Below are positions 29,442 through 45,970 of a stretch of DNA of 53,720 bases, piece after piece. Below the pieces are notes generated by a model. It saw only the letters and a program-made list of their open reading frames with translations. It had not been told where the DNA came from and did no database searches. A program made the translations under genes and the position numbers. Positions within the stretch are counted from its first letter, which is position 1, and every line of letters starts with the position of its first letter. This DNA is from Cycloclasticus sp. symbiont of Poecilosclerida sp. M (lineage in GTDB: Bacteria; Pseudomonadota; Gammaproteobacteria; Methylococcales; Cycloclasticaceae). Location of the stretch: positions 1 to 53,720 of the forward strand of contig LWTN01000239.1 in NCBI GenBank assembly GCA_002101225.1. The letters run 5' to 3'.

Positions 29442-29467
29442 TTTTCTAACCTAACTAATTGTTTTAT

Positions 29468-30817
29468 ATGAAATATGATTACGGTTTAATTGCAATTGGT
29501 GGGGGTAGCGGCGGCATTGCAGGCGCAAACAGAGCGGCCTCTTACGGCGTCAAATGTGCCGTTATTGAACAAGCACGTTTAGGTGGTACTTGCGTTAACG
29601 TTGGTTGCGTTCCAAAAAAGGTTATGTGGTTTGCAGCCAATATCGCAAACACAATCCGTTCAGCAGAAAACTACGGTTTTGATGTATCGCTAAACGGTTT
29701 CAATTGGCCTGAGCTGAAGCAAAAAAGAGACGCCTACATTCAACGATTAAACGGTATTTATGCCAACAATTTAACCAACAATGGCGTTGATCACATCGAA
29801 GGCACAGCCTCTTTTATCGACCCACATACCCTTCAAGTGGGCGACAGGCAGATAACGGCCGAACGTTTTCTTATTGCAACAGGCGGCAAGCCGTCTATTC
29901 CTAATATTCCCGGTGCAGAGTACGGCATTACATCCGATGGTTTTTTTGAACTTACGGAGCAGCCCAAAAACGTAGCTGTTATCGGCGCGGGTTTTATTGC
30001 CGTTGAATTAGTCGGCGTATTTCAATCACTCGGTACACAAGTTAGCCTAATAGTCCGCGGCGATCATGCCCTACGCCAATTTGATTCCATGCTCGGCGAA
30101 GAGCTCGCTAAAGCCATGCAACACCAAGGCATTAGATTAAAAACAAACACCTCACCCACGTCTATTGAGAAAACGTCTACTGGCAAATTCATTATCAAGA
30201 CAAAAGACAGCCAATTAGATGGTGAATTTGATGGGATTCTCTGGGCCGTCGGTAGAGCCGCCAACACAGATGGGTTAAACCTTCACGCCGCAGGGCTTGA
30301 ATCAGACCAACGTGGTTTTATCCAAACGGACGAATGGCAAAAAACAACGCAAGACCATATCTTTGCCGTTGGCGATGTCACTGGCCAAATCGCCCTCACC
30401 CCTGTTGCCATTGCCGCTGCACGGCGTTTAAGCGACCGTTTATATAGCGATCAAACCGATAGAAAATTAGATTACGACCTAATTCCCAGCGTTATCTTTT
30501 CGCACCCTCCTATCGGCACTATTGGTTTAACCGAGCAACAAGCCAAAGAACGACACGGTGAAGCCGTTAAGGTATACACATCCAGCTTTAACCCAATGAC
30601 ACAAGCTTTATCAGTCGATAAACAACCCACCGCCATGAAACTTGTGACGGTAGGCGAGGATGAAAAGATTATCGGTTGCCACCTGTTTGGAGAAAGCTCA
30701 GATGAAATACTCCAAGGCTTTGCGGTGGCCATTAAGATGGGTGCGACAAAGAAAGACTTTGACGATACCGTCGCTATTCACCCGACGAATGCGGAAGAGT
30801 TGGTAACGATGACGTAA
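29468..30817 (+). CDS. gor: Glutathione-disulfide reductase Gor
   Basis: Gor reduces GSSG to GSH with NADPH and FAD. The protein of about 449 residues has an FAD site (IAIGGGSGGIAGANRAA), the redox-active disulfide GGTCVNVGCVPKKVMW, and an NADPH site VAVIGAGFIAVELVG. A second FAD motif, IFAVGDVTG, is followed by the closing HPTNAEELVTM with the His-Glu pair. The ATG at 29468 is preferred. The in-frame TTG at 29459 would add three residues. It is separate from dapE by 26 bases. Confidence 0.95.
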   Translation: MKYDYGLIAIGGGSGGIAGANRAASYGVKCAVIEQARLGGTCVNVGCVPKKVMWFAANIANTIRSAENYGFDVSLNGFNWPELKQKRDAYIQRLNGIYANNLTNNGVDHIEGTASFIDPHTLQVGDRQITAERFLIATGGKPSIPNIPGAEYGITSDGFFELTEQPKNVAVIGAGFIAVELVGVFQSLGTQVSLIVRGDHALRQFDSMLGEELAKAMQHQGIRLKTNTSPTSIEKTSTGKFIIKTKDSQLDGEFDGILWAVGRAANTDGLNLHAAGLESDQRGFIQTDEWQKTTQDHIFAVGDVTGQIALTPVAIAAARRLSDRLYSDQTDRKLDYDLIPSVIFSHPPIGTIGLTEQQAKERHGEAVKVYTSSFNPMTQALSVDKQPTAMKLVTVGEDEKIIGCHLFGESSDEILQGFAVAIKMGATKKDFDDTVAIHPTNAEELVTMT

Positions 30818-30942
30818 AGATTTTTTTGTTCTAATAATTGATGGATAAAGCCAAGCCAAACAGCCTTATCGTTTGAGCGAGACTTATGCCCTGTAGGTAT
30901 ATACAATTAATACGCGAAAATCGCTTCCGCTTATTCACACTA

Positions 30943-30980
30943 TTAGGTCTGCGCCATTCCGCTACGCGTCGCAGACCTAA
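30943..30980. repeat. Perfect inverted repeat (11-bp stem) upstream of the restriction gene
   Basis: TTAGGTCTGCG (30943-30953) and CGCAGACCTAA (30970-30980) are exact complements around a 16-base loop. There is no T-run on either strand, so it is not a simple terminator. It lies in the 229-base gap before the restriction-endonuclease remnant. The gap also holds GAGACTTATGCCCTGTAGGT (30880-30899), which resembles part of the hairpin at 9041-9131. Confidence 0.6.
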
Positions 30981-31046
30981 GGGCAACCGCGGATTGACGC
31001 CCACCTAGTTAATCGGTGTTAGCATTCAAAGATAATTGCACCGTAT

Positions 31047-31951
31047 ATGGACAAAAAAGAATACATCATCAGACAACCAGGTAGAACAAAAAGCAAAAAA
31101 TATGAAGCTTATGTTGTTACCAGAATTATTCATTTAATAGATGATTTTAGCATTAAATTTGTTACTCAACAATATGTAACTCGCCCCGAAGGTAGGGCAT
31201 TGACAGATCTATTTTTTCCTCAATTTGGGGTGCATATTGAAGTAGATGAGGGTCAGCATTTTATCGATAATAATATCAAAGAAGACAAAATTCGCGAGGC
31301 GGATATTATTAATGCAACAGGACATGAAGTGCTACGTGTTGATGTTACAAAATCATTTCAGAGCATCAATACTAAAATTAACAAAATAGTGAAAAAGATT
31401 AAGCAATTGAGAAACCATAATCAGTTTATCGCTTGGGTTATTGATGCAGAATATAATTCTAAAACATATATTTCACAAGGTTACATTGATGTTTCTGATA
31501 ATGTTGCATTTAAACCCATAAAAGATGCCTGTAATTGTTTTGGGCATAATTATTCTGGCTATCAAAGGGCAGGTGCATCTCACCCAAACCCTGCTATTAT
31601 GCTTTGGTTTCCAAAATTATTCTTGGGTCATGACAAGTTAAGCGGCTCTTTTCTGAACATTTTGAGTAAAATATTGTATATATCTTGCTCTCGATTATTA
31701 AATCTAAACTCACACTCTTTAAGGTGCAAATTGAACAAACCTTTATCCATTCCTTTAAACTTCACCAGTCGTATTTTAGCATAAGAAAGAAACACCAAAG
31801 GATTGTTTTTGCAAAAGTAAAGGGTAATCTAGGAGATGTATTATATCGATTTAAGGGTTTGTATAAATTAGATGCTCAAAAAAGTAATCAGAAAAGAGGG
31901 CTTGTTTGGACAAGAGCCGAAACAAGAGTTAAGACCTATACACAAAAATAG
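31047..31951 (+). pseudogene. AbaSI/PvuRts1I-type modification-dependent restriction endonuclease, frameshifted
   Basis: The first frame (31047, reads to 31784) gives a Vsr-like nuclease domain with ALTDLFFPQFGVHIEVDEGQH, where D54, E65 and D67 form the expected acidic site, and GHEVLRVDV after it. Further on, GYQRAG and IMLWFPKLFLG are typical of the AbaSI/PvuRts1I C-terminal half, an SRA-like domain. Around 31667-31690 the homology moves to another frame, which carries KKHQRIVFAKVKGNLGDV, LYRFKGLYKLD and RVKTY and stops at 31951. Restored length of about 301 residues suits the family. These enzymes cut DNA with 5-hydroxymethyl- or glucosyl-hydroxymethyl-cytosine, as in T-even-like phages, and have no methylase partner. 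The region is markedly AT-rich compared with its neighbours, suggesting transfer. Confidence 0.75.
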
Positions 31952-32005
31952 TGCTGACGAATCATTCCAGCCGACCGCCAGTGGCGCGTCGGCTGAATTC
32001 AAGCG

Positions 32006-32311
32006 TTAACTCCCCTTCCGCCTCTTCTCACCCTCTTCAAACGCTGTTAACTGTTCAGGCGTTGCTGGCTTCTGATGCTTCTCTTTCCATTCCGTAAAAG
32101 GCATTCCGTACACAACTTCTCTGGCTGCGTCATAGTCTATTTCTACACCCTTCTCTTTGGCTTCCGCCATATACCACTTAGAAAAGCAGTTACGGCAAAA
32201 GTTCGCTAAATTCATTAAGTCTATGTTTTGCACATCGGTATGGGTTTGGAAGTGATTGATAATGCGTCTAAAGGCGGCGGCTTCTATCTCTAACTGTGTT
32301 TGCTTATCCAT
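32006..32311 (-). CDS. DUF1244-family protein
   Basis: This 101-residue cytosolic protein of unknown function matches the DUF1244 family. The family block DLMNLANFCRNCFSKWY has two cysteines three apart, followed by YDAAREVVYGMPFTEWK. No catalytic role is established. It lies 12 bases after zapE on the same strand and is likely co-transcribed. Confidence 0.88.
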   Translation of the reverse strand: MDKQTQLEIEAAAFRRIINHFQTHTDVQNIDLMNLANFCRNCFSKWYMAEAKEKGVEIDYDAAREVVYGMPFTEWKEKHQKPATPEQLTAFEEGEKRRKGS

Positions 32312-39594: not shown

Positions 39595-40911
39595 GTGCTT
39601 AATGTGTCAAAAAATAAAATAAGCGGCAAAGCTTACTTAGCTGAACTCGCAAATAATGTCCCTTCAAATGCACGGCGTAACTTTTTAAAACAAGGTGTTA
39701 AATTTAGCACAGGACTCGTCGCTGCGGTTGCAAGCAACGAAGCAATATCAGGTAACAGCACCGCACTAGACGTACCTAGCTGGAGCAAATCATTAGGTTC
39801 TGGAGTGGTTTCAACACCTTACGGCATACCTTCAAAATTTGAAAAGAACGTCATACGACGTACCGTACCTTGGTTAACCGCCGACAAAATATCTTCCATA
39901 AGCATGTCTCCTATTCAAGAATTAAAGGGGATAATCACACCTAACGGCTTAGTGTTCGAACGGTACCATGCCGGCTCACCAACGGTTGACCCTGAACAAC
40001 ACCGTTTAATGATTCATGGGCTTGTGGATAATCCACTCATGTTCACGATGGATGACTTGATGCGTTTTCCTTCAGAGTCTGTCATTCACTTTCTTGAGTG
40101 CCCAGCTAATGGTGGGATGGAATGGCGTGGCCCTCAAATGGAGGCTCTGCAGTTCACCCATGGAATGGTAAGTTGCTGCGAATGGACGGGCGTTAGACTT
40201 TCAACACTTCTTGATGAAGTTGGCCTAAAAAGCAAGGCTAAGTGGGTGCTTGCTGAAGGTGCAGATGGTGCAGGCATGAGCCGTAGCATCCCGCTCGACA
40301 AAGCACTGGATGATGCACTTATTGTGTATGCACAAAACGGTGAAATGCTTCGTCCTGAACAAGGCTACCCCGTTCGTTTATTCAACCCTGGCTGGGAAGG
40401 CAATACATCAGTTAAGTGGTTACGACGCTTAGAAATTGGCGATAAGCCATGGCATCACCGTGAAGAAACATCAAAGTATACTGACTTAATGCCTGATGGC
40501 CGTGCAAGGCGTTTCACGTATGAGCAAGAAGCCAATTCTGTCATTACTTCCCCTTGTCCTGAAAACCCGTGGGGCAGCCGTGGTTCGTATCAAATTGAGG
40601 GCATTGCTTGGAGTGGGCGTGGCAAAATAAAACAAGTAGATATCTCACTCGACGGTGGTGTTAGTTGGCGGCCAACTAAGCTAAAGGGTCTCGTACTCTC
40701 TAAAGCCCTAACGCGTTTTTCTCTACCTTATAGTTGGGATGGTGCACCCGCTCTGCTTCAAAGCCGTGCTATTGATGAAACAGGCTACGTTCAACCCACT
40801 CTTTCGCAACTTAGAAAGGTGCGTGGCACAAATACGATTTACCATAAAAACTCTATACACACATGGCAGCTGTTAAGTGATGGGAAAGTTAAAAATGTAC
40901 AACTCAAGTAA
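39595..40911 (+). CDS. soxC: Sulfane dehydrogenase SoxC (molybdenum subunit)
   Basis: SoxC, with SoxD, oxidises the SoxY-bound sulfane sulfur in the periplasm. The 438-residue protein has a twin-arginine start (ARRNFLKQGVKFSTGLVAAV, about residues 27-46). The sulfite-oxidase fold has RYHAGSPTVDPEQHRLMIHG, the Moco-ligand cysteine in HFLECPANGG, and a dimerisation domain (WSGRGKIKQVDISLDGG). The GTG at 39595 is used; an in-frame GTG at 39604 is also possible. It is the first gene of the Sox operon and overlaps soxD. Confidence 0.94.
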   Translation: MLNVSKNKISGKAYLAELANNVPSNARRNFLKQGVKFSTGLVAAVASNEAISGNSTALDVPSWSKSLGSGVVSTPYGIPSKFEKNVIRRTVPWLTADKISSISMSPIQELKGIITPNGLVFERYHAGSPTVDPEQHRLMIHGLVDNPLMFTMDDLMRFPSESVIHFLECPANGGMEWRGPQMEALQFTHGMVSCCEWTGVRLSTLLDEVGLKSKAKWVLAEGADGAGMSRSIPLDKALDDALIVYAQNGEMLRPEQGYPVRLFNPGWEGNTSVKWLRRLEIGDKPWHHREETSKYTDLMPDGRARRFTYEQEANSVITSPCPENPWGSRGSYQIEGIAWSGRGKIKQVDISLDGGVSWRPTKLKGLVLSKALTRFSLPYSWDGAPALLQSRAIDETGYVQPTLSQLRKVRGTNTIYHKNSIHTWQLLSDGKVKNVQLK

Positions 40912-41842
40912 AATTTCTATAGCCATAACGTGCGCTATTGCACTGCTGTTTTCAGCCGCCGCGCTTGCAGGGCCTAAAACAAGCTATGGATTGGGCGTAA
41001 CGCCTACTAAAGAAGAAATTGCTCTGTGGGATATTGATGTAAGACCAGATGGTCAAGGCTTACCGATTGGTAAAGGCTCAGCAATTGAGGGTGAAGCGAT
41101 GTACGAGGCTAAATGCGCCTCTTGTCACGGATCTTTTGGTGAAGGTGAAGGGCGCTGGCCGCCCCTTGCTGGTGGCGAAAACACCTTAAAGGATGACCGC
41201 CCCGAAAAAACCGTCGGGAGTTATTGGCCTTATGCGTCAACGCTTTGGGATTATATTAATAGAGCCATGCCCTTCCCTGCACCAAAAACGCTGACTGTTC
41301 ACGAGGTCTACGCAATCACAGCTTATGTTCTTTACCTCAACGACTTAATTGAAGACGACTACGTGCTTACGCAAGATAACTTGGCGCAAGTTAAAATGCC
41401 CAATCAAGATAACTTTTATGCTGACGACCGCCCCGACACACATAACACTCGCTGCATGAATAATTGTAAAAAACCTAAAGACATTGTCATCGTGCAATCT
41501 CTTCGCGGCATCACACCTGAGCAGGAAGAAGAGCAAGAACAGGGTGCAGCTAAAGTTGAAGAAAAAGCTAAGCCCACGCTCAGCAAAAATGCCTTAGCGG
41601 GTGAAGCACCTTATAAGCAAAGCTGCTTTGTTTGTCATGGAAGTGGTATTGCTGACGCGCCAAGAACGGGTGATAAAAACGCTTGGGCTAGCCGCCTTAA
41701 ACAGGGCACACCAATGCTAATTAAACACGCTATTGAAGGCTATATTGGTGACGCTGGCGTAATGCCTCCTAAAGGCGGTAATATGAACCTAACAGACGAA
41801 CAAGTAACTGCCGCTGTTCACTACATGCTTGAACAAAATTAA
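40895..41842 (+). CDS. soxD: SoxD diheme cytochrome c subunit of sulfane dehydrogenase
   Basis: This is the c-type cytochrome electron acceptor for SoxC. The protein of about 315 residues has a Sec signal (ISIAITCAIALLFSAAALAG) and two heme c sites: CASCH in the N-terminal domain and CFVCH in the C-terminal domain. A region rich in Glu/Gln/Lys (TPEQEEEQEQGAAKVEEKAK) separates them. ATG 40895-40897 is preferred because GGGAAAGTTAAAA precedes it. The start lies inside the end of soxC (17-base overlap), giving coupled expression. Having both hemes fits a complete SoxCD. Confidence 0.93.
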   Translation: MYNSSKISIAITCAIALLFSAAALAGPKTSYGLGVTPTKEEIALWDIDVRPDGQGLPIGKGSAIEGEAMYEAKCASCHGSFGEGEGRWPPLAGGENTLKDDRPEKTVGSYWPYASTLWDYINRAMPFPAPKTLTVHEVYAITAYVLYLNDLIEDDYVLTQDNLAQVKMPNQDNFYADDRPDTHNTRCMNNCKKPKDIVIVQSLRGITPEQEEEQEQGAAKVEEKAKPTLSKNALAGEAPYKQSCFVCHGSGIADAPRTGDKNAWASRLKQGTPMLIKHAIEGYIGDAGVMPPKGGNMNLTDEQVTAAVHYMLEQN

Positions 41843-41860
41843 TTAATTGCTTTATTTCAT

Positions 41861-42205
41861 ATGTTGAAAAAAACAAACACTCTCAAGTTACTTCTTAGCT
41901 TAACGTTAACAACTGCAAGTTTAGCTACGCCCTTATTCGCAGCGACTGGAAAAGAAATTGCATTTGACCGTAAAAAAGGTAATTGCCTAGCGTGTCACGC
42001 GATGGATGACGGTGATATGCCTGGCAATATCGGCCCACCTTTAGTGGCTATGACGGCAAGATTCCCTGACCGTGCTATTTTAAAAGCGCAAATATTCGAC
42101 GCAACGAAAAGAAACCCTATTTCCATCATGCCGCCCTTTGGCAAACATGAAATACTGAATGATGCTGAATTAGAAAAAATTATCGATTACTTATATACAC
42201 TTTAA
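41861..42205 (+). CDS. soxX: SoxX monoheme cytochrome c
   Basis: SoxX is the smaller subunit of SoxXA, which couples thiosulfate to the SoxY cysteine. The 114-residue protein has a Sec signal (LLLSLTLTTASLATPLFA), one heme site NCLACHAMDDGDMPGNIGPP, and a downstream Met axial-ligand region (ISIMPPFGKHEIL). No clear Shine-Dalgarno is seen, but the 18-base spacing from soxD supports co-translation. Confidence 0.92.
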   Translation: MLKKTNTLKLLLSLTLTTASLATPLFAATGKEIAFDRKKGNCLACHAMDDGDMPGNIGPPLVAMTARFPDRAILKAQIFDATKRNPISIMPPFGKHEILNDAELEKIIDYLYTL

Positions 42206-42225
42206 CCACAATATACGGAGAAAAT

Positions 42226-42684
42226 ATGTACATTACACGAAGAAAATTTTTAAACATACTTACAGTGAGCACCGCTGCATGCGCCACCTTATTAGCCCCT
42301 ATAACGACGTGGGCTGCTTGGGCGAGCAAAGCATTTAACGCGACAAAATTAGACGACGCATATCAAAACTTATTCGGCACAACTACGCTTACCGCAAGCG
42401 ATAAAATCGTTTTGAAATTACCGAAAATTGCTGAAAATGGTGGTGCCGTTCCTGTATCCGTTAAAACAGACCTTGATAGCGTCGAAACCATCAATATTTT
42501 TGTTAAAGACAACCCTAACCCACTAACAGCTTCATTCCATATACCCGAAGGAACGATTGCAGACATTTCAACGCGTATACGCTTGGCTCAAACCAGTACC
42601 GTTACCGCTGTCATTAACGCGGGCGGCAAATTACATAGCGCTAGCCAAGAAGTAAAAGTAACGATTGGCGGCTGCGGCGGCTAA
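42226..42684 (+). CDS. soxY: SoxY sulfur-carrier subunit
   Basis: SoxY carries covalently bound sulfur intermediates on a C-terminal cysteine. The 152-residue protein has a Tat signal (ITRRKFLNILTVSTAACATL) and an Ig-like fold, and ends exactly in GGCGG, the swinging-arm motif with the substrate-binding Cys. Its partner SoxZ follows after 22 bases. ACGGAGAAAAT precedes the ATG. Confidence 0.97.
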   Translation: MYITRRKFLNILTVSTAACATLLAPITTWAAWASKAFNATKLDDAYQNLFGTTTLTASDKIVLKLPKIAENGGAVPVSVKTDLDSVETINIFVKDNPNPLTASFHIPEGTIADISTRIRLAQTSTVTAVINAGGKLHSASQEVKVTIGGCGG

Positions 42685-42706
42685 GAAACATATTTAGGAG
42701 ACAAAC

Positions 42707-43009
42707 ATGAAAGTTAAAGCAAAATTTAAAAACAATATTACAAGCGTACGTCTACTAGCCAAACACCCGATGGAAACTGGGCGTAGAAAAAACAAAGAAA
42801 CAGGCGAATTAATTCCCGCCAAATACATCCAAGAGCTAAGTTGCGAGCACAATGGAAAAGTCGTATTTCTAGCGCAGCTTGGGACGTCAGTTTCCAAGCA
42901 CCCCTACTTCGCCTTTGCATTCAATGGTGGCGAAAAAGGTCAAACAGTACAGCTGCGTTGGAATGACAACACAGGTGACGTTAAAAAAGTTGACGCGACC
43001 ATTAAATAG
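42707..43009 (+). CDS. soxZ: SoxZ sulfur-carrier partner protein
   Basis: SoxZ forms the heterodimer with SoxY and has no signal of its own, so it is carried to the periplasm with SoxY by the Tat pathway. The 100-residue protein shows VRLLAKHPMETGRRKNKETG and LGTSVSKHPYFAFAF, which are characteristic SoxZ segments. AGGAGACAAAC precedes the ATG. Confidence 0.96.
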   Translation: MKVKAKFKNNITSVRLLAKHPMETGRRKNKETGELIPAKYIQELSCEHNGKVVFLAQLGTSVSKHPYFAFAFNGGEKGQTVQLRWNDNTGDVKKVDATIK

Positions 43010-43025
43010 ACCTTAAGGAATCTTT

Positions 43026-43859
43026 ATGCAACGCCTGCTCAACACTTTTCTATCCCTTTCATTAATCGTGGTTGCTATACCTGCCGTAGCCACGCCTGAA
43101 CAGAATAAGGAGAGCTTTCAAAAGTTTTATATGGATCGCTTTTCTCACATAGAAAAAGATGACTTTGCCAACGGCGTATACGCGCTTGATCAGGATGCGC
43201 GCGATCAATGGGAAGCGATGAGTGACTTTCCACCCTTTGAAGATGACTTAGACGAAGGTGAGGCGTTATTCAACACGCCTTTTGCTAATGGCAAACAGTA
43301 CGCTGATTGTTTCGAAAACAAAGGTCAGGGAGTCCGTCAGAACTACCCGCAATTCGACTCTAAAAGTGGGCAAGTTATCACATTAGAACTCGCAATTAAT
43401 AACTGCCGCACCCAACATGGTGAGAAAGCCTTACCTTATAAAAAAGGTGATCTTGCAAAAGTTTCAGCTTATATGGCATCAACGTCTAAAGGTGAACGTT
43501 TTGATATTAAAATACCTAACGACAAACGTGCACAACAAGCCTATGAGGCCGGCAAAAAATATTACTATTCTAAGCGTGGCCAATTAAATTTCTCTTGCGC
43601 AAATTGCCACGTACAAAACGTGGGTCGTAAAGCACGCTCAGAAACATTAAGTGCTTCTCTTGGTCACCCTACCCATTTTCCTGTTTATCGCATGAAATGG
43701 GAGTCCTTTGGCACCTTGCAAAGACGTTTTGACTCTTGTAATAAGCAAGTGCGCGCCCAGCCGCTTGAAGGTCAAGCTAAAGATTACAGAAACCTTGAAT
43801 ACTTCCTAACTTATATGAGTAATGGACTGCCCGTTAACGGTCCAGCTTCTAGAAAATAG
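43026..43859 (+). CDS. soxA: SoxA cytochrome c (monoheme type)
   Basis: SoxA is the catalytic subunit of SoxXA. The 277-residue protein has a Sec signal (LSLSLIVVAIPAVATP). Only one CxxCH (FSCANCHVQNVG) is present, so this is the single-heme type and not the diheme Rhodovulum form. The N-terminal half keeps cysteines (YADCFENKG, NNCRTQHG) where diheme SoxA has its first heme. The active-site heme-ligand cysteine, modified to persulfide, is the C in RFDSCNKQVRAQP. It sits 16 bases after soxZ and 17 before soxK. Confidence 0.94.
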   Translation: MQRLLNTFLSLSLIVVAIPAVATPEQNKESFQKFYMDRFSHIEKDDFANGVYALDQDARDQWEAMSDFPPFEDDLDEGEALFNTPFANGKQYADCFENKGQGVRQNYPQFDSKSGQVITLELAINNCRTQHGEKALPYKKGDLAKVSAYMASTSKGERFDIKIPNDKRAQQAYEAGKKYYYSKRGQLNFSCANCHVQNVGRKARSETLSASLGHPTHFPVYRMKWESFGTLQRRFDSCNKQVRAQPLEGQAKDYRNLEYFLTYMSNGLPVNGPASRK

Positions 43860-43876
43860 CACCTACACAGAATATT

Positions 43877-44197
43877 TTGAATACAAAGAAAATGCTTTTA
43901 CCGTTACTTTCGCTCTCATTACTCATGTGCGTTTTCAGCACAGGCGTTATTGCAAGTGATAAACAGTCAGCTCAAGCAGCTATTAAAAAAGCAACCACAC
44001 TTTTACAGCAATCAAAAAATCTTGGTTTTGAATGGAATACAGTCACACCCCTTATTCTCCAAGCGCAGGATGCTATAAAAGCCAACGATTTCGATAATGC
44101 CACCCAGTTTGCAGTAAAAGCTAGTCAACAAGCCAAATTGAGTATTCAGCAAGCTGAGAACGAAGAAAAAAACTGGCATTTTAATCTTCCTAAATAA
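43877..44197 (+). CDS. soxK: SoxK-like SoxXA-binding protein
   Basis: This 106-residue secreted protein has a Sec signal ending near VIASD (about residue 27). It then has two helical repeats of the type KKATTLLQQSKNLGFEWNTV and AQDAIKANDFDNATQFAVKA. The short form, the place between soxA and soxB, and the GFEW plus AKANDF-type pattern match the SoxAX-binding protein (SoxK/SAXB) described from other sulfur oxidisers, which stimulates the SoxXA-YZ reaction. A TTG start (43877) is possible; ATG at 43892 would still leave a signal peptide. Confidence 0.75.
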   Translation: MNTKKMLLPLLSLSLLMCVFSTGVIASDKQSAQAAIKKATTLLQQSKNLGFEWNTVTPLILQAQDAIKANDFDNATQFAVKASQQAKLSIQQAENEEKNWHFNLPK

Positions 44198-44221
44198 CGC
44201 CCGTACTGGAGTTGCACGACC

Positions 44222-45970
44222 ATGAATCGCCGCGAATTTAACCGCTTATTAGTCGCTGGCGCGGTAGCTGGCATTATTCCTAAAACTGGTTTCGCGCTTT
44301 CTCAGGTCAAACCTAACTACAACATTCCTCAAAAAGGCAACGCACGACTGCTCCATATTACAGATTGCCACGCACAGCTCAACCCTGTGTATTTTAGAGA
44401 GCCCGACGTCAATTTAGGTTTCCATAAGGCGCTTGGACGGACGCCTCATATCGTTGGCGAAGCTTTTTTAAAGAAAAACAATCTATCTAAAAATTCGCTA
44501 GAAGCTCACGCTTTTACCTACCTAAACTTTAACTCTGCTGCAAAAGAGTATGGAAAAGTTGGCGGGTTTTCCCACTTAAGCACGCTAGTTAAAAAACTAC
44601 GCGGATTAGCGGGTGGCGAAAACAATTCATTATTGCTCGATGGGGGCGATACTTGGCAGGGCTCTGCAACCGCGTACTGGTCACGCGGAAAAGATATGGT
44701 TCAAGCGGCCAACCTATTGGGGGTTGATATCATGACCGGCCATTGGGAGTTTACATATCAGGACGAGGAAGTGTTTTCCAATATAGATGATTTTGAGGGT
44801 GAATTTTTAGCACAAAATATAAAACTGACGGAAGACGCCTTATTTGAAGGCAAACAAACACACGACGAAGATACAGGTCACGTCTTTAAACCCTACATAA
44901 TTCGCGAAATTAATGGACAACGCTTAGCCATAATTGGCCAAGCCTTCCCTTACACACCGGTTGCCAATCCAAAACGATTTATTCCCGATTGGACATTCGG
45001 CATTCGCAACCAAGATTTACAAGAATTAATTAACGCCATTAAAGTTGATGAGAAACCAGCTGCCATTATTCTACTTTCGCATAACGGCATGGACGTCGAT
45101 TTAAAACTTGCATCTGTTGTCACGGGCATCGACTTTATCTTGGGTGGCCACACACACGATGGTGTTCCTACGCCCGTATCTGTTAAAAATAGCCTCGGTA
45201 CAACGATCGTCACAAATGCCGGATCCAATGGTAAATTTTTAGGTGTATTAGATTTGAATTTGCAAGATGGCGGACTTAAAGGTTATGAATATCGGCTACT
45301 CCCTGTTTTCTCAAACTTCATTGAACCCGATAAACAGATGAACGCGTTAATTGATGAAATACGCAAACCGCACTTAGACGCACTCCAAGAAGAATTGACC
45401 GTGACCGAGACACTGCTCTACAGACGTGGCAACTTCAACGGCACATTCGACCAGCTGATTTGTGATGCACTACGCCACGAGCTCAATGCGCAAATTGCTC
45501 TATCCCCAGGTTTTAGATGGGGTACGACCGTTCTTCCTGGTGAGGCCGTTACCTTTGAAAACGTCATGGATCAAACCTGCATTACCTATCCAGAAACATA
45601 CGCTCGAGATATGCTCGGTAAAGAAATCAAGGCTATTTTAGAAGACGTTGCAGACAACCTATTCCACCCAGACCCATTTTATCAACAAGGCGGCGATATG
45701 GTGCGCGTCGGTGGCATGAACTACATCTGCGACCCTATGGCAAAACCGGGTAACCGCATTTCTAATATGACACTCGACTCGGATAAGGCAATTATGCCCA
45801 ATAAAACTTACAAAGTTTCTGGCTGGGCAACGGTCGGTTCGAAAGCGCCTGGAAAACCTATTTGGGACGTCGTGGCATCTTACCTTCGAAGCCAAAAAAC
45901 AATCAATATCAGCCACCTCAATTCGCCTGTTTTAAAAAATATCGATAATAACCCTGGCATAGTTCTTTAG
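44222..45970 (+). CDS. soxB: SoxB sulfate thiohydrolase
   Basis: SoxB hydrolyses the terminal sulfone from SoxY-bound intermediate to release sulfate, using two Mn ions. The 582-residue protein has a Tat signal (NRREFNRLLVAGAVAGIIP) and a metallophosphatase domain: LLHITDCHAQLNPVYFRE, LLDGGDTWQGSATAYWSRG, MTGHWEFTYQ, AIILLSHNGMDVDLK and ILGGHTHDGVPTP. A 5'-nucleotidase-like C-domain follows. The TGDVALTG-type loop and the QGGDMVRVGGM segment are typical. It closes the operon; a possible terminator hairpin lies at 46031-46047. Confidence 0.96.
   Translation: MNRREFNRLLVAGAVAGIIPKTGFALSQVKPNYNIPQKGNARLLHITDCHAQLNPVYFREPDVNLGFHKALGRTPHIVGEAFLKKNNLSKNSLEAHAFTYLNFNSAAKEYGKVGGFSHLSTLVKKLRGLAGGENNSLLLDGGDTWQGSATAYWSRGKDMVQAANLLGVDIMTGHWEFTYQDEEVFSNIDDFEGEFLAQNIKLTEDALFEGKQTHDEDTGHVFKPYIIREINGQRLAIIGQAFPYTPVANPKRFIPDWTFGIRNQDLQELINAIKVDEKPAAIILLSHNGMDVDLKLASVVTGIDFILGGHTHDGVPTPVSVKNSLGTTIVTNAGSNGKFLGVLDLNLQDGGLKGYEYRLLPVFSNFIEPDKQMNALIDEIRKPHLDALQEELTVTETLLYRRGNFNGTFDQLICDALRHELNAQIALSPGFRWGTTVLPGEAVTFENVMDQTCITYPETYARDMLGKEIKAILEDVADNLFHPDPFYQQGGDMVRVGGMNYICDPMAKPGNRISNMTLDSDKAIMPNKTYKVSGWATVGSKAPGKPIWDVVASYLRSQKTINISHLNSPVLKNIDNNPGIVL

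What the first reader, a model, noticed from the sequence alone, without database searches (positions are those of the whole stretch)
31047..31951. Frameshifted AbaSI/PvuRts1I-type (5hmC-dependent) restriction endonuclease in an AT-rich island
Two adjacent frames together encode about 301 residues. The first carries a Vsr-like nuclease core (ALTDLFFPQFGVHIEVDEGQH, with D54, E65 and D67) and a GYQRAG / WFPKLF segment. The second carries RIVFAKVKGNLGDVLYRF, which ends the SRA-like domain in this family. Such enzymes act against phages with hydroxymethylated or glucosylated cytosine. The frame changes around 31667-31690 next to an A-run, so it is either a decayed defence gene or a sequence error. 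The gene is stand-alone, AT-rich, and flanked by a perfect inverted repeat at 30943-30980, which hints at transfer.
Basis: partly seen in the sequence, partly recalled or inferred. Interest (0 to 1): 0.7.

Follow-up and report, generated by a model that had tools for sequence, protein, structure and literature searches.

The report
Broken AbaSI cassette at orphan attI
The suspected 'frameshifted' anti-phage restriction gene is a real AbaSI-family gene that was carried in as an integron gene cassette and later destroyed by an insertion-sequence fragment. It sits beside a truncated copy of an integron landing site (attI) that is scattered, mostly without an integrase gene, over the chromosomes of this bacterial genus.

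Summary
The gene identity is confirmed; the stated cause of the break is not. Window 31047-31951 is an AbaSI/PvuRts1I-family endonuclease (PF21598 plus both ends of PF18491; best PDB match AbaSI). The frame change is not an A-run slip or read error. A 159-bp remnant of an IS1595-family element (31625-31783, 98-100% identical to eight other copies of that IS end in this genome) replaces about 38 codons, including residues that form half of the 5hmC pocket in PvuRts1I.

The gene is an integron cassette (31019-32005). It ends in an attC site (31951-32012), and DNA homology to an intact relative in another genus starts exactly at the cassette boundary. Upstream is the right half of an attI (30895-30945).

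Following that site out of the window gave the more novel result. The genus carries about 35 dispersed ~97-bp attI copies without intI, downstream of core genes such as metZ, recJ and moeB. Conservation stops at G|TTA. All 60 attC sites found in these loci lie downstream on the same strand. Orthologous sites in different species hold unrelated cassettes. This looks like multi-platform integrons rather than one array per integrase. Whether the resident integrase serves these sites in trans is inferred, not shown.

The parts
29459..30817 (+). gor-like (glutathione reductase family) gene; core gene upstream of the insertion
   Evidence: ORF list. In relative G015 gor is followed directly by the 101-aa gene, with no attI or cassette.
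30895..30945 (+). right half of an attI (type A), ending in a degenerate core A|TTAGGT (crossover 30942/30943; 37 of 38 full-length copies have G there)
   Evidence: nhmmer model columns 46-97, E=2.7e-7; 85-88% identical to four copies elsewhere in the genome, including the one beside intI on C218
30943..31018 (+). gene-less segment starting at the attI crossover; contains the 11-bp inverted repeat 30943-30953/30970-30980
   Evidence: sequence; DNA fold z=-3.4. A similar TTAGGTCTGCGCC start follows a type-B attI downstream of metZ in the same genome.
31019..32005 (+). integron gene cassette holding the nuclease gene (left core G|TTAGCA, right boundary G|TTAAC)
   Evidence: DNA homology to L007 (another genus) begins exactly at 31019 and runs into the attC; attC at the 3' end
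31047..31624 (+). N-terminal nuclease domain and first part of the SRA-like domain, AbaSI/PvuRts1I family
   Evidence: PF21598 E=2e-34, PF18491 profile 1-70; PADLOC mREase_II E=1e-82; AbaSI 4par E=3.5e-58
31625..31783 (-). IS1595-family remnant: intact outer IS end (GGGTCATGACAAGTTAAG at 31625) and transposase C-terminus on the minus strand; rest of the IS and about 38 nuclease codons deleted
   Evidence: 98-100% identity to 8 other IS ends, all with the same outer boundary; PF12762 DDE_Tnp_IS1595 E=2e-10 on a longer copy, L026
31784..31951 (+). C-terminal end of the SRA-like domain, out of frame with the N-terminal part
   Evidence: PF18491 profile 93-145 E=8e-14; AbaSI E=6e-8
31951..32012 (+). 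attC site (R'' GCTGAC 31953-31958; R' GTTAAC 32005-32010)
   Evidence: bottom-strand fold z=-3.7, 0 of 200 shuffles as stable; covariance model R2 45.8 bits, E=2e-6 and E=1.1e-5 in a whole-genome search; R1 also scores it, but it was in that model's seed
32006..32311 (-). 101-aa core gene; its stop codon abuts the cassette end exactly (G|TTA)
   Evidence: present in 16 of 18 genus genomes

Best explanation
The locus is a dead AbaSI-family (5hmC/glucosyl-hmC-dependent) restriction gene delivered as an integron cassette. An integron integrase inserted the circular cassette (31019-32005, attC at its 3' end) behind an attI located away from the integrase gene, between gor and a conserved 101-aa gene. 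Later an IS1595-family element jumped into the gene. A deletion then removed most of the IS together with about 38 codons of the SRA-like domain. What remains is 159 bp of IS end that splits the protein into two frames and removes half of the base-binding pocket, so no active enzyme is expected. The landing site is a truncated member of a family of ~97-bp attI copies dispersed over the chromosomes of this genus, nearly all without intI and each with its own exchangeable cassettes. Shown: gene family, IS remnant, attC, cassette boundaries, attI copies, cassette turnover. Inferred: the order of events, 5hmC specificity, and that IntI expressed from one locus (C218 in this genome) served these sites in trans.
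For: Gene family. IS remnant with the same outer boundary as eight other copies, and AbaSI homology resuming downstream after the loss of ~38 codons. attC. Cassette boundary: homology to L007 starts at 31019, and L007 keeps the left half of an attC after its stop codon. attI half-site. Integrase: one intact intI in this genome, C218, 445 bits. Gene present in 1 of 18 genus genomes. Empty site in G015. Genus-wide solo attI with attC always downstream on the same strand (60 of 60) and different cassettes at shared sites.
Against: The window's attI is only a half-site with a G-to-A change at the crossover, so its own activity is doubtful. The left core GTTAGCA deviates from GTTRRRY at its last two positions. 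Most AbaSI homologues outside this lineage (L006, L008-L024) have no attC of this type. The assembly is a 244-contig draft with contigs ending in this IS, so a misjoin cannot be fully excluded, although the loss of gene sequence and the same-gene flanks argue against one. No expression or activity data.
Confidence: 0.85

Rival explanations
1. Solo attI sites are ruins: each was once a complete integron (intI-attI-cassettes) whose intI was deleted, leaving attI plus cassettes (the usual reading of CALINs).
For: Five copies without an intI ORF keep detectable intI 5' DNA next to the attI (L088, L089, L097, L103, L114); L088 is cut by its contig start. Several genomes hold solo type-A attI but only a type-B or type-C integrase (G015, G008, G017, G005).
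Against: About 30 copies show no intI remnant, although the intI start codon lies only about 13 bp from the attI in complete platforms; random decay should leave variable remnants. The right edge of conservation is sharp at G|TTA. Cassettes differ completely at six shared upstream-gene sites, so they changed after the site was in place.
Confidence: 0.35
2. The window gene carries a simple frameshift or sequencing error and is otherwise an intact 301-aa enzyme.
For: Both ends of the protein match AbaSI well.
Against: 31625-31783 is IS DNA and aligns to no AbaSI residue; about 38 codons are missing relative to the intact homologue L007.
Confidence: 0.02
3. The 97-bp repeats are a palindromic REP/MITE-like element that happens to lie near cassettes, not attI.
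For: The element has internal inverted repeats (CCATGT...ACATGG; TATCCAC...GTGGACA) and is multicopy (sequences).
Against: In five genomes it occupies the intI-cassette intergenic space. Identity ends within a few bases of the G|TTRRRY crossover in most pairwise comparisons. Cassette ORFs start just after it and 57 of 59 run in the same direction. A REP would not predict this.
Confidence: 0.05
4. The AbaSI gene was not a cassette; the attC next to its stop codon is a chance hairpin.
For: The attC R''/R' pairing is imperfect, and a simple palindrome scan scores it near background.
Against: Covariance E=1.1e-5 in a whole-genome search; L007 has a half attC at the same place; homology starts at the left core base; the 3' boundary abuts the neighbouring gene's stop codon.
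Confidence: 0.05

Closest known systems
AbaSI / PvuRts1I family of modification-dependent (type IV-like) endonucleases
   Same: N-terminal nuclease domain (PF21598) with the acidic core TD...IEVDE, and SRA-like domain ends (PF18491); best PDB matches AbaSI 4par and PvuRts1I 4oky
   Different: Pseudogene: IS remnant inside, about 38 codons lost. By the alignment the loss spans PvuRts1I residues ~212-242, including Trp215 and Asn217, proposed to stack on and hydrogen-bond the flipped base (PMC4157451). Carried as an integron cassette.
Sedentary chromosomal integron (intI + attI + attC cassettes)
   Same: Intact integron integrase (TIGR02249, 445 bits), attI beside it, attC cassettes
   Different: attI is multicopy and dispersed, mostly without intI, at core-gene 3' ends; known integrons typically have one attI next to the integrase (PMC9024848)
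CALIN (cluster of attC lacking integrase)
   Same: attC-bearing cassettes far from any intI
   Different: These clusters begin with a conserved attI copy. [quoted passage not shown]
delta-attI-type gene cassettes of class 1/2 integrons
   Same: attI sequence found away from the platform (PMC12901181)
   Different: There the partial attI replaces the attC at a cassette's 3' end inside one array; here near-complete attI copies head separate arrays at separate loci
attG insertion of cassettes (Loot et al. 2024, cited in PMC11023631; not read here)
   Same: Cassettes inserted in the genome outside the integron
   Different: attG sites are non-classical genomic targets, not copies of attI
IS1595 (ISXO2-like) insertion sequences
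   Same: PF12762 transposase C-terminus; multicopy in this genome
   Different: Only 159 bp of one end remains in the window

Membership tests
AbaSI/PvuRts1I endonuclease | PvuRts1I-like N-terminal nuclease domain with acidic catalytic core | tested here: met
   PF21598 E=2e-34; ALTDLFFPQFGVHIEVDEGQH aligns to AbaSI
AbaSI/PvuRts1I endonuclease | complete SRA-like base-flipping domain | tested here: not met
   PF18491 profile positions 71-92 missing, replaced by IS DNA; pocket residues equivalent to PvuRts1I Trp215/Asn217 fall in the lost part
AbaSI/PvuRts1I endonuclease | single intact reading frame | tested here: not met
   two frames
AbaSI/PvuRts1I endonuclease | cleavage of 5hmC/glucosyl-hmC DNA | not testable with these tools
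   needs an assay; intact homologues L006 and L007 exist
Integron gene cassette | attC site at the 3' end of the ORF | tested here: met
   31951-32012, R2 E=2e-6; fold z=-3.7
Integron gene cassette | left boundary at G|TTRRRY | tested here: inconclusive
   G|TTAGCA at 31018/31019 departs from RRRY at its end, but homology to L007 starts exactly there
Integron gene cassette | absence of the unit in relatives (mobility) | tested here: met
   1 of 18 genomes has the gene; G015 empty locus
Complete integron | intI adjacent to attI | tested here: not met
   no intI in the window; the only over-cut-off intI is on C218
attI recombination site | sits between intI and the first cassette and ends at the crossover | tested here: met
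   for the full-length family; the window copy is a half-site only
attI recombination site | IntI binding and recombination | not testable with these tools
   needs a plasmid recombination assay
IS1595 element | IS end plus IS1595-type transposase | tested here: met
   remnant only

The most novel reading that the evidence does not exclude
In this genus the integron is not one array beside one integrase. attI itself has become a dispersed repeat. One chromosomal integrase (type A or B) works in trans on many solo attI platforms fixed behind core genes, giving each genome several independent cassette docks, often stocked with defence genes (CBASS, TIR, AbaSI-type).
Probability: 0.5. Interest if true: 0.85.

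Novelty: new variant of a known kind. Interest (0 to 1): 0.6.

Why it matters
The nuclease pseudogene is ordinary by itself. The dispersed attI copies are not. Integrase-less cassette clusters are usually read as broken integrons, and detection software does not look for attI outside class 1. If solo attI platforms are served in trans, those clusters can be live, the cassette capacity of a genome is spread over many promoters and replication contexts, and how attI sites themselves spread becomes testable in a small-genome lineage with closed chromosomes. It would also explain how defence genes keep being swapped at fixed chromosomal addresses.

Tried and rejected
(1) Simple frameshift or A-run slip: rejected by the IS match. 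(2) A hand-written palindrome finder for attC was too lax, then too strict; replaced by covariance models. (3) NCBIfam gave nothing for the nuclease. Pfam did not recognise the 56-aa transposase tail alone; a longer copy did. (4) AbaSI homologues in general as cassettes: no attC of this type in L006-L024; only L007 shows a half attC, seen by eye and by DNA alignment but not by the covariance model. (5) A second boundary at -81 in attI comparisons looked like a recombination edge but is explained by a variable 5-6 nt spacer. (6) A consensus promoter scan of attI found nothing. (8) Literature: five open-library searches aimed at multiple, solitary or dispersed attI found no report of dispersed attI copies; subscription papers and preprints were not searchable. 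(10) Some searches failed on coordinates and were repeated or dropped.

Full report
What was claimed and what is there. The family assignment holds. ORF 31047-31784 matches PF21598 (PvuRts1I-like_N, E=2e-34) and the first half of PF18491 (SRA, profile 1-70). The second frame matches PF18491 profile 93-145 (E=8e-14). PADLOC calls both pieces mREase_II. The best solved structures are AbaSI (4par, E=3.5e-58) and PvuRts1I (C-terminal part). The acidic nuclease core TD...IEVDE is conserved.

The break is an IS remnant. Between the two matched pieces lies DNA that no AbaSI relative has. Read on the minus strand it encodes the C-terminus of a transposase. A search of the same genome found it at nine further places at E<=1e-4, eight of them near-identical. 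DNA comparison shows all eight start at the same outer IS end, GGGTCATGACAAGTTAAG, which in the window is 31625; identity (98-100%) runs to 31783. A longer copy, L026, matches PF12762 DDE_Tnp_IS1595 (E=2e-10). The intact homologue in L007 has about 40 residues between WFPKLF and HQRIVFAKV. In the window about 38 of these codons are gone and the IS fragment stands in their place. The lost part aligns to PvuRts1I residues of about 212-242, which include Trp215 and Asn217, proposed to hold the flipped 5hmC (PMC4157451). So the gene is dead by a two-step event, an IS insertion followed by a deletion across the IS edge, not by a base slip. A pure assembly jump over a whole IS would resume at the target duplication, not about 110 bp further into the gene; that argues for a real deletion, although the genome is a draft of 244 contigs.

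The gene is an integron cassette. Immediately after the stop codon, 31951-32012 folds as an attC (bottom strand z=-3.7, none of 200 shuffles as stable). A covariance model built from seven sites and extended to 48 scores it 45.8 bits: E=2e-6 over 440 kb and E=1.1e-5 in a search of the whole genome. The window site was in the seven-sequence seed and in the extended set, so these scores are not fully independent evidence. The genome has exactly one integron integrase over the TIGR02249 cut-off, intact, 445 bits, on another contig, C218. DNA homology between the window and L007 (titled Candidatus Ruthturnera MAG) starts exactly at 31019, the first base after the left core G|TTAGCA, and continues into the R'' half of the attC; L007 keeps GTGCTAACAAATAGCGCCAGC after its stop codon, half of an attC. 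That is independent support. The right boundary G|TTAAC at 32005/32006 abuts the stop codon of the neighbouring 101-aa core gene. The nuclease gene occurs in one of 18 genomes of the genus, and in G015 the gor/101-aa junction has neither cassette nor attI. Among 19 AbaSI-type homologues found in named genomes no other attC of this type was seen.

The landing site. Upstream, window 30895-30945 is 85-88% identical to four other places in the genome, one of them between intI and its first cassette on C218; that is the attI.

Dispersed attI copies. With the C218 attI as query, 15 of 18 same-genus genomes have matches, up to seven per genome, and none of 23 genomes from other families of the order do. 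A class-wide sample of 369 genomes gave one strong match outside the genus (G183, 90%, near a contig end) and otherwise weak or short matches. I fetched 40 stretches with these copies. The unit is about 97 bp. Five copies lie beside an intI of type A. About 35 do not, including copies in two closed genomes, G008 (intI at 2.46 Mb; attI at 1.13, 1.80 and 1.80 Mb) and G015 (intI at 0.14 Mb; attI at 0.35, 1.02, 1.25 and 1.41 Mb). Solo copies usually lie 3-300 bp behind a gene that runs towards them. By sequence these genes include metZ (three species), a HI0933-type oxidoreductase (three), recJ (two), moeB/thiF (two), tauD (two), an MFS transporter (two) and pepN (names are mine from the sequences).

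Why these are attI sites. (a) Over 38 full copies, columns -14 to 0 (TTATTAACACTG|TTA) are 92-100% conserved except one column, and conservation drops at +1. (b) When the same site is compared between species, DNA identity runs through the upstream gene and the attI and stops within a few bases of the crossover: +2 for the MFS site (96% over 477 bp), +2 for the oxidoreductase site (90% over 808 bp), 0 for tauD (78% over 1.5 kb), +14 for metZ G001/G017. (c) With the covariance model searched on both strands of whole stretches, all 60 attC sites at E<=0.01 lie downstream of the attI on the same strand, in 26 loci; four of these loci contributed seed sequences, so about 22 are independent of the seed. 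(d) 57 of 59 ORFs between attI and the last attC run in the cassette direction. (e) At six shared upstream genes, no downstream protein is shared between species among the first three held. (f) At metZ, G017 has metZ-attI-cassettes-yebC over about 8.4 kb, whereas seven relatives have metZ and yebC about 100-300 bp apart.

What the cassettes carry. 56 predicted proteins span 36 Pfam families, with none of the 25 listed families shared by two members. A two-gene CBASS (Cap15 2TM effector and oligonucleotide cyclase) sits at the metZ site of G001, and a TIR protein at the MFS site of G015. An AbaSI-type gene fits this stock.

How it may work, and limits. The simplest model is that IntI expressed from one locus recombines cassettes at any attI copy it recognises. 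In support, C217 and C220 of the window's genome carry the same first cassette (99.5% identity from -81 to +361, up to the contig ends) behind two different core genes. Against a simple model, integrases fall into three clades (A, B, C; 42-66% identity between clades), and the A and B clades have their own attI type beside them. G015, G008, G017 and G005 hold solo type-A attI but only a type-B integrase, while the window's genome has type A and two solo type-B attI, at C222 and behind metZ on C231. Either recognition crosses types or some solo sites are orphans. Five copies keep intI 5' relics, so at least some derive from former complete platforms. How attI copies spread is open. I rate trans service at about 0.5.

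Known versus new. The gene family, the IS family, attC cassettes and integrase-less attC clusters are all known. [quoted passage not shown] PMC12901181 describes partial attI inside class 1/2 arrays, a different arrangement. Five searches of the open library aimed at this point found no report of dispersed attI platforms; subscription papers and preprints were not searchable.

Noticed in passing
G000 contigs C217:1-456 and C220:1-443 (L093, L095): Two attI platforms behind different core genes carry the same first cassette (99.5% identical over 443 bp up to the contig ends), a possible recent cassette copy between platforms.
   Followed up: partly
G000:C231 (L168 2695-2803) and G000:C222:778-876 (L174): Solo copies of a second attI type (type B, cognate to integrases of G015/G008/G017/G005) in a genome whose only integron integrase is type A.
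   Followed up: partly
L104 5121-6748 (G001, metZ site): A two-gene CBASS (Cap15-like 2TM effector plus cyclase) sits in a cassette position directly behind a solo attI.
   Followed up: partly
L007 1797-4178: In another genus the same AbaSI cassette relic also lies next to the 3' end of a gor-like gene, but in the opposite relative orientation; coincidence or a shared insertion preference.
   Followed up: no
L114, L120, L124: Some attI copies are split near column 50 by inserts (about 47-180 bp); L114 and L120, in different genomes, share about the same insert, and the L124 insert contains attC-like hairpins.
   Followed up: no
G008:C1:1799721-1803206 (L102): Two attI copies in the same orientation 3.4 kb apart in a closed genome.
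   Followed up: no
L119 1962-3230 (G001:C79): A tyrosine recombinase (Phage_integrase, 423 aa) distinct from intI is the first gene behind a solo attI, followed by an attC.
   Followed up: no
G183:C1:499-596 (L145): A 90% identical attI in a genome of another family, near a contig end; transfer or contamination of a draft genome.
   Followed up: no
window 39595-45970: Sox-type sulfur oxidation gene cluster (SoxB-like, sulfite dehydrogenase-like, cytochromes), judged from the sequences only.
   Followed up: no
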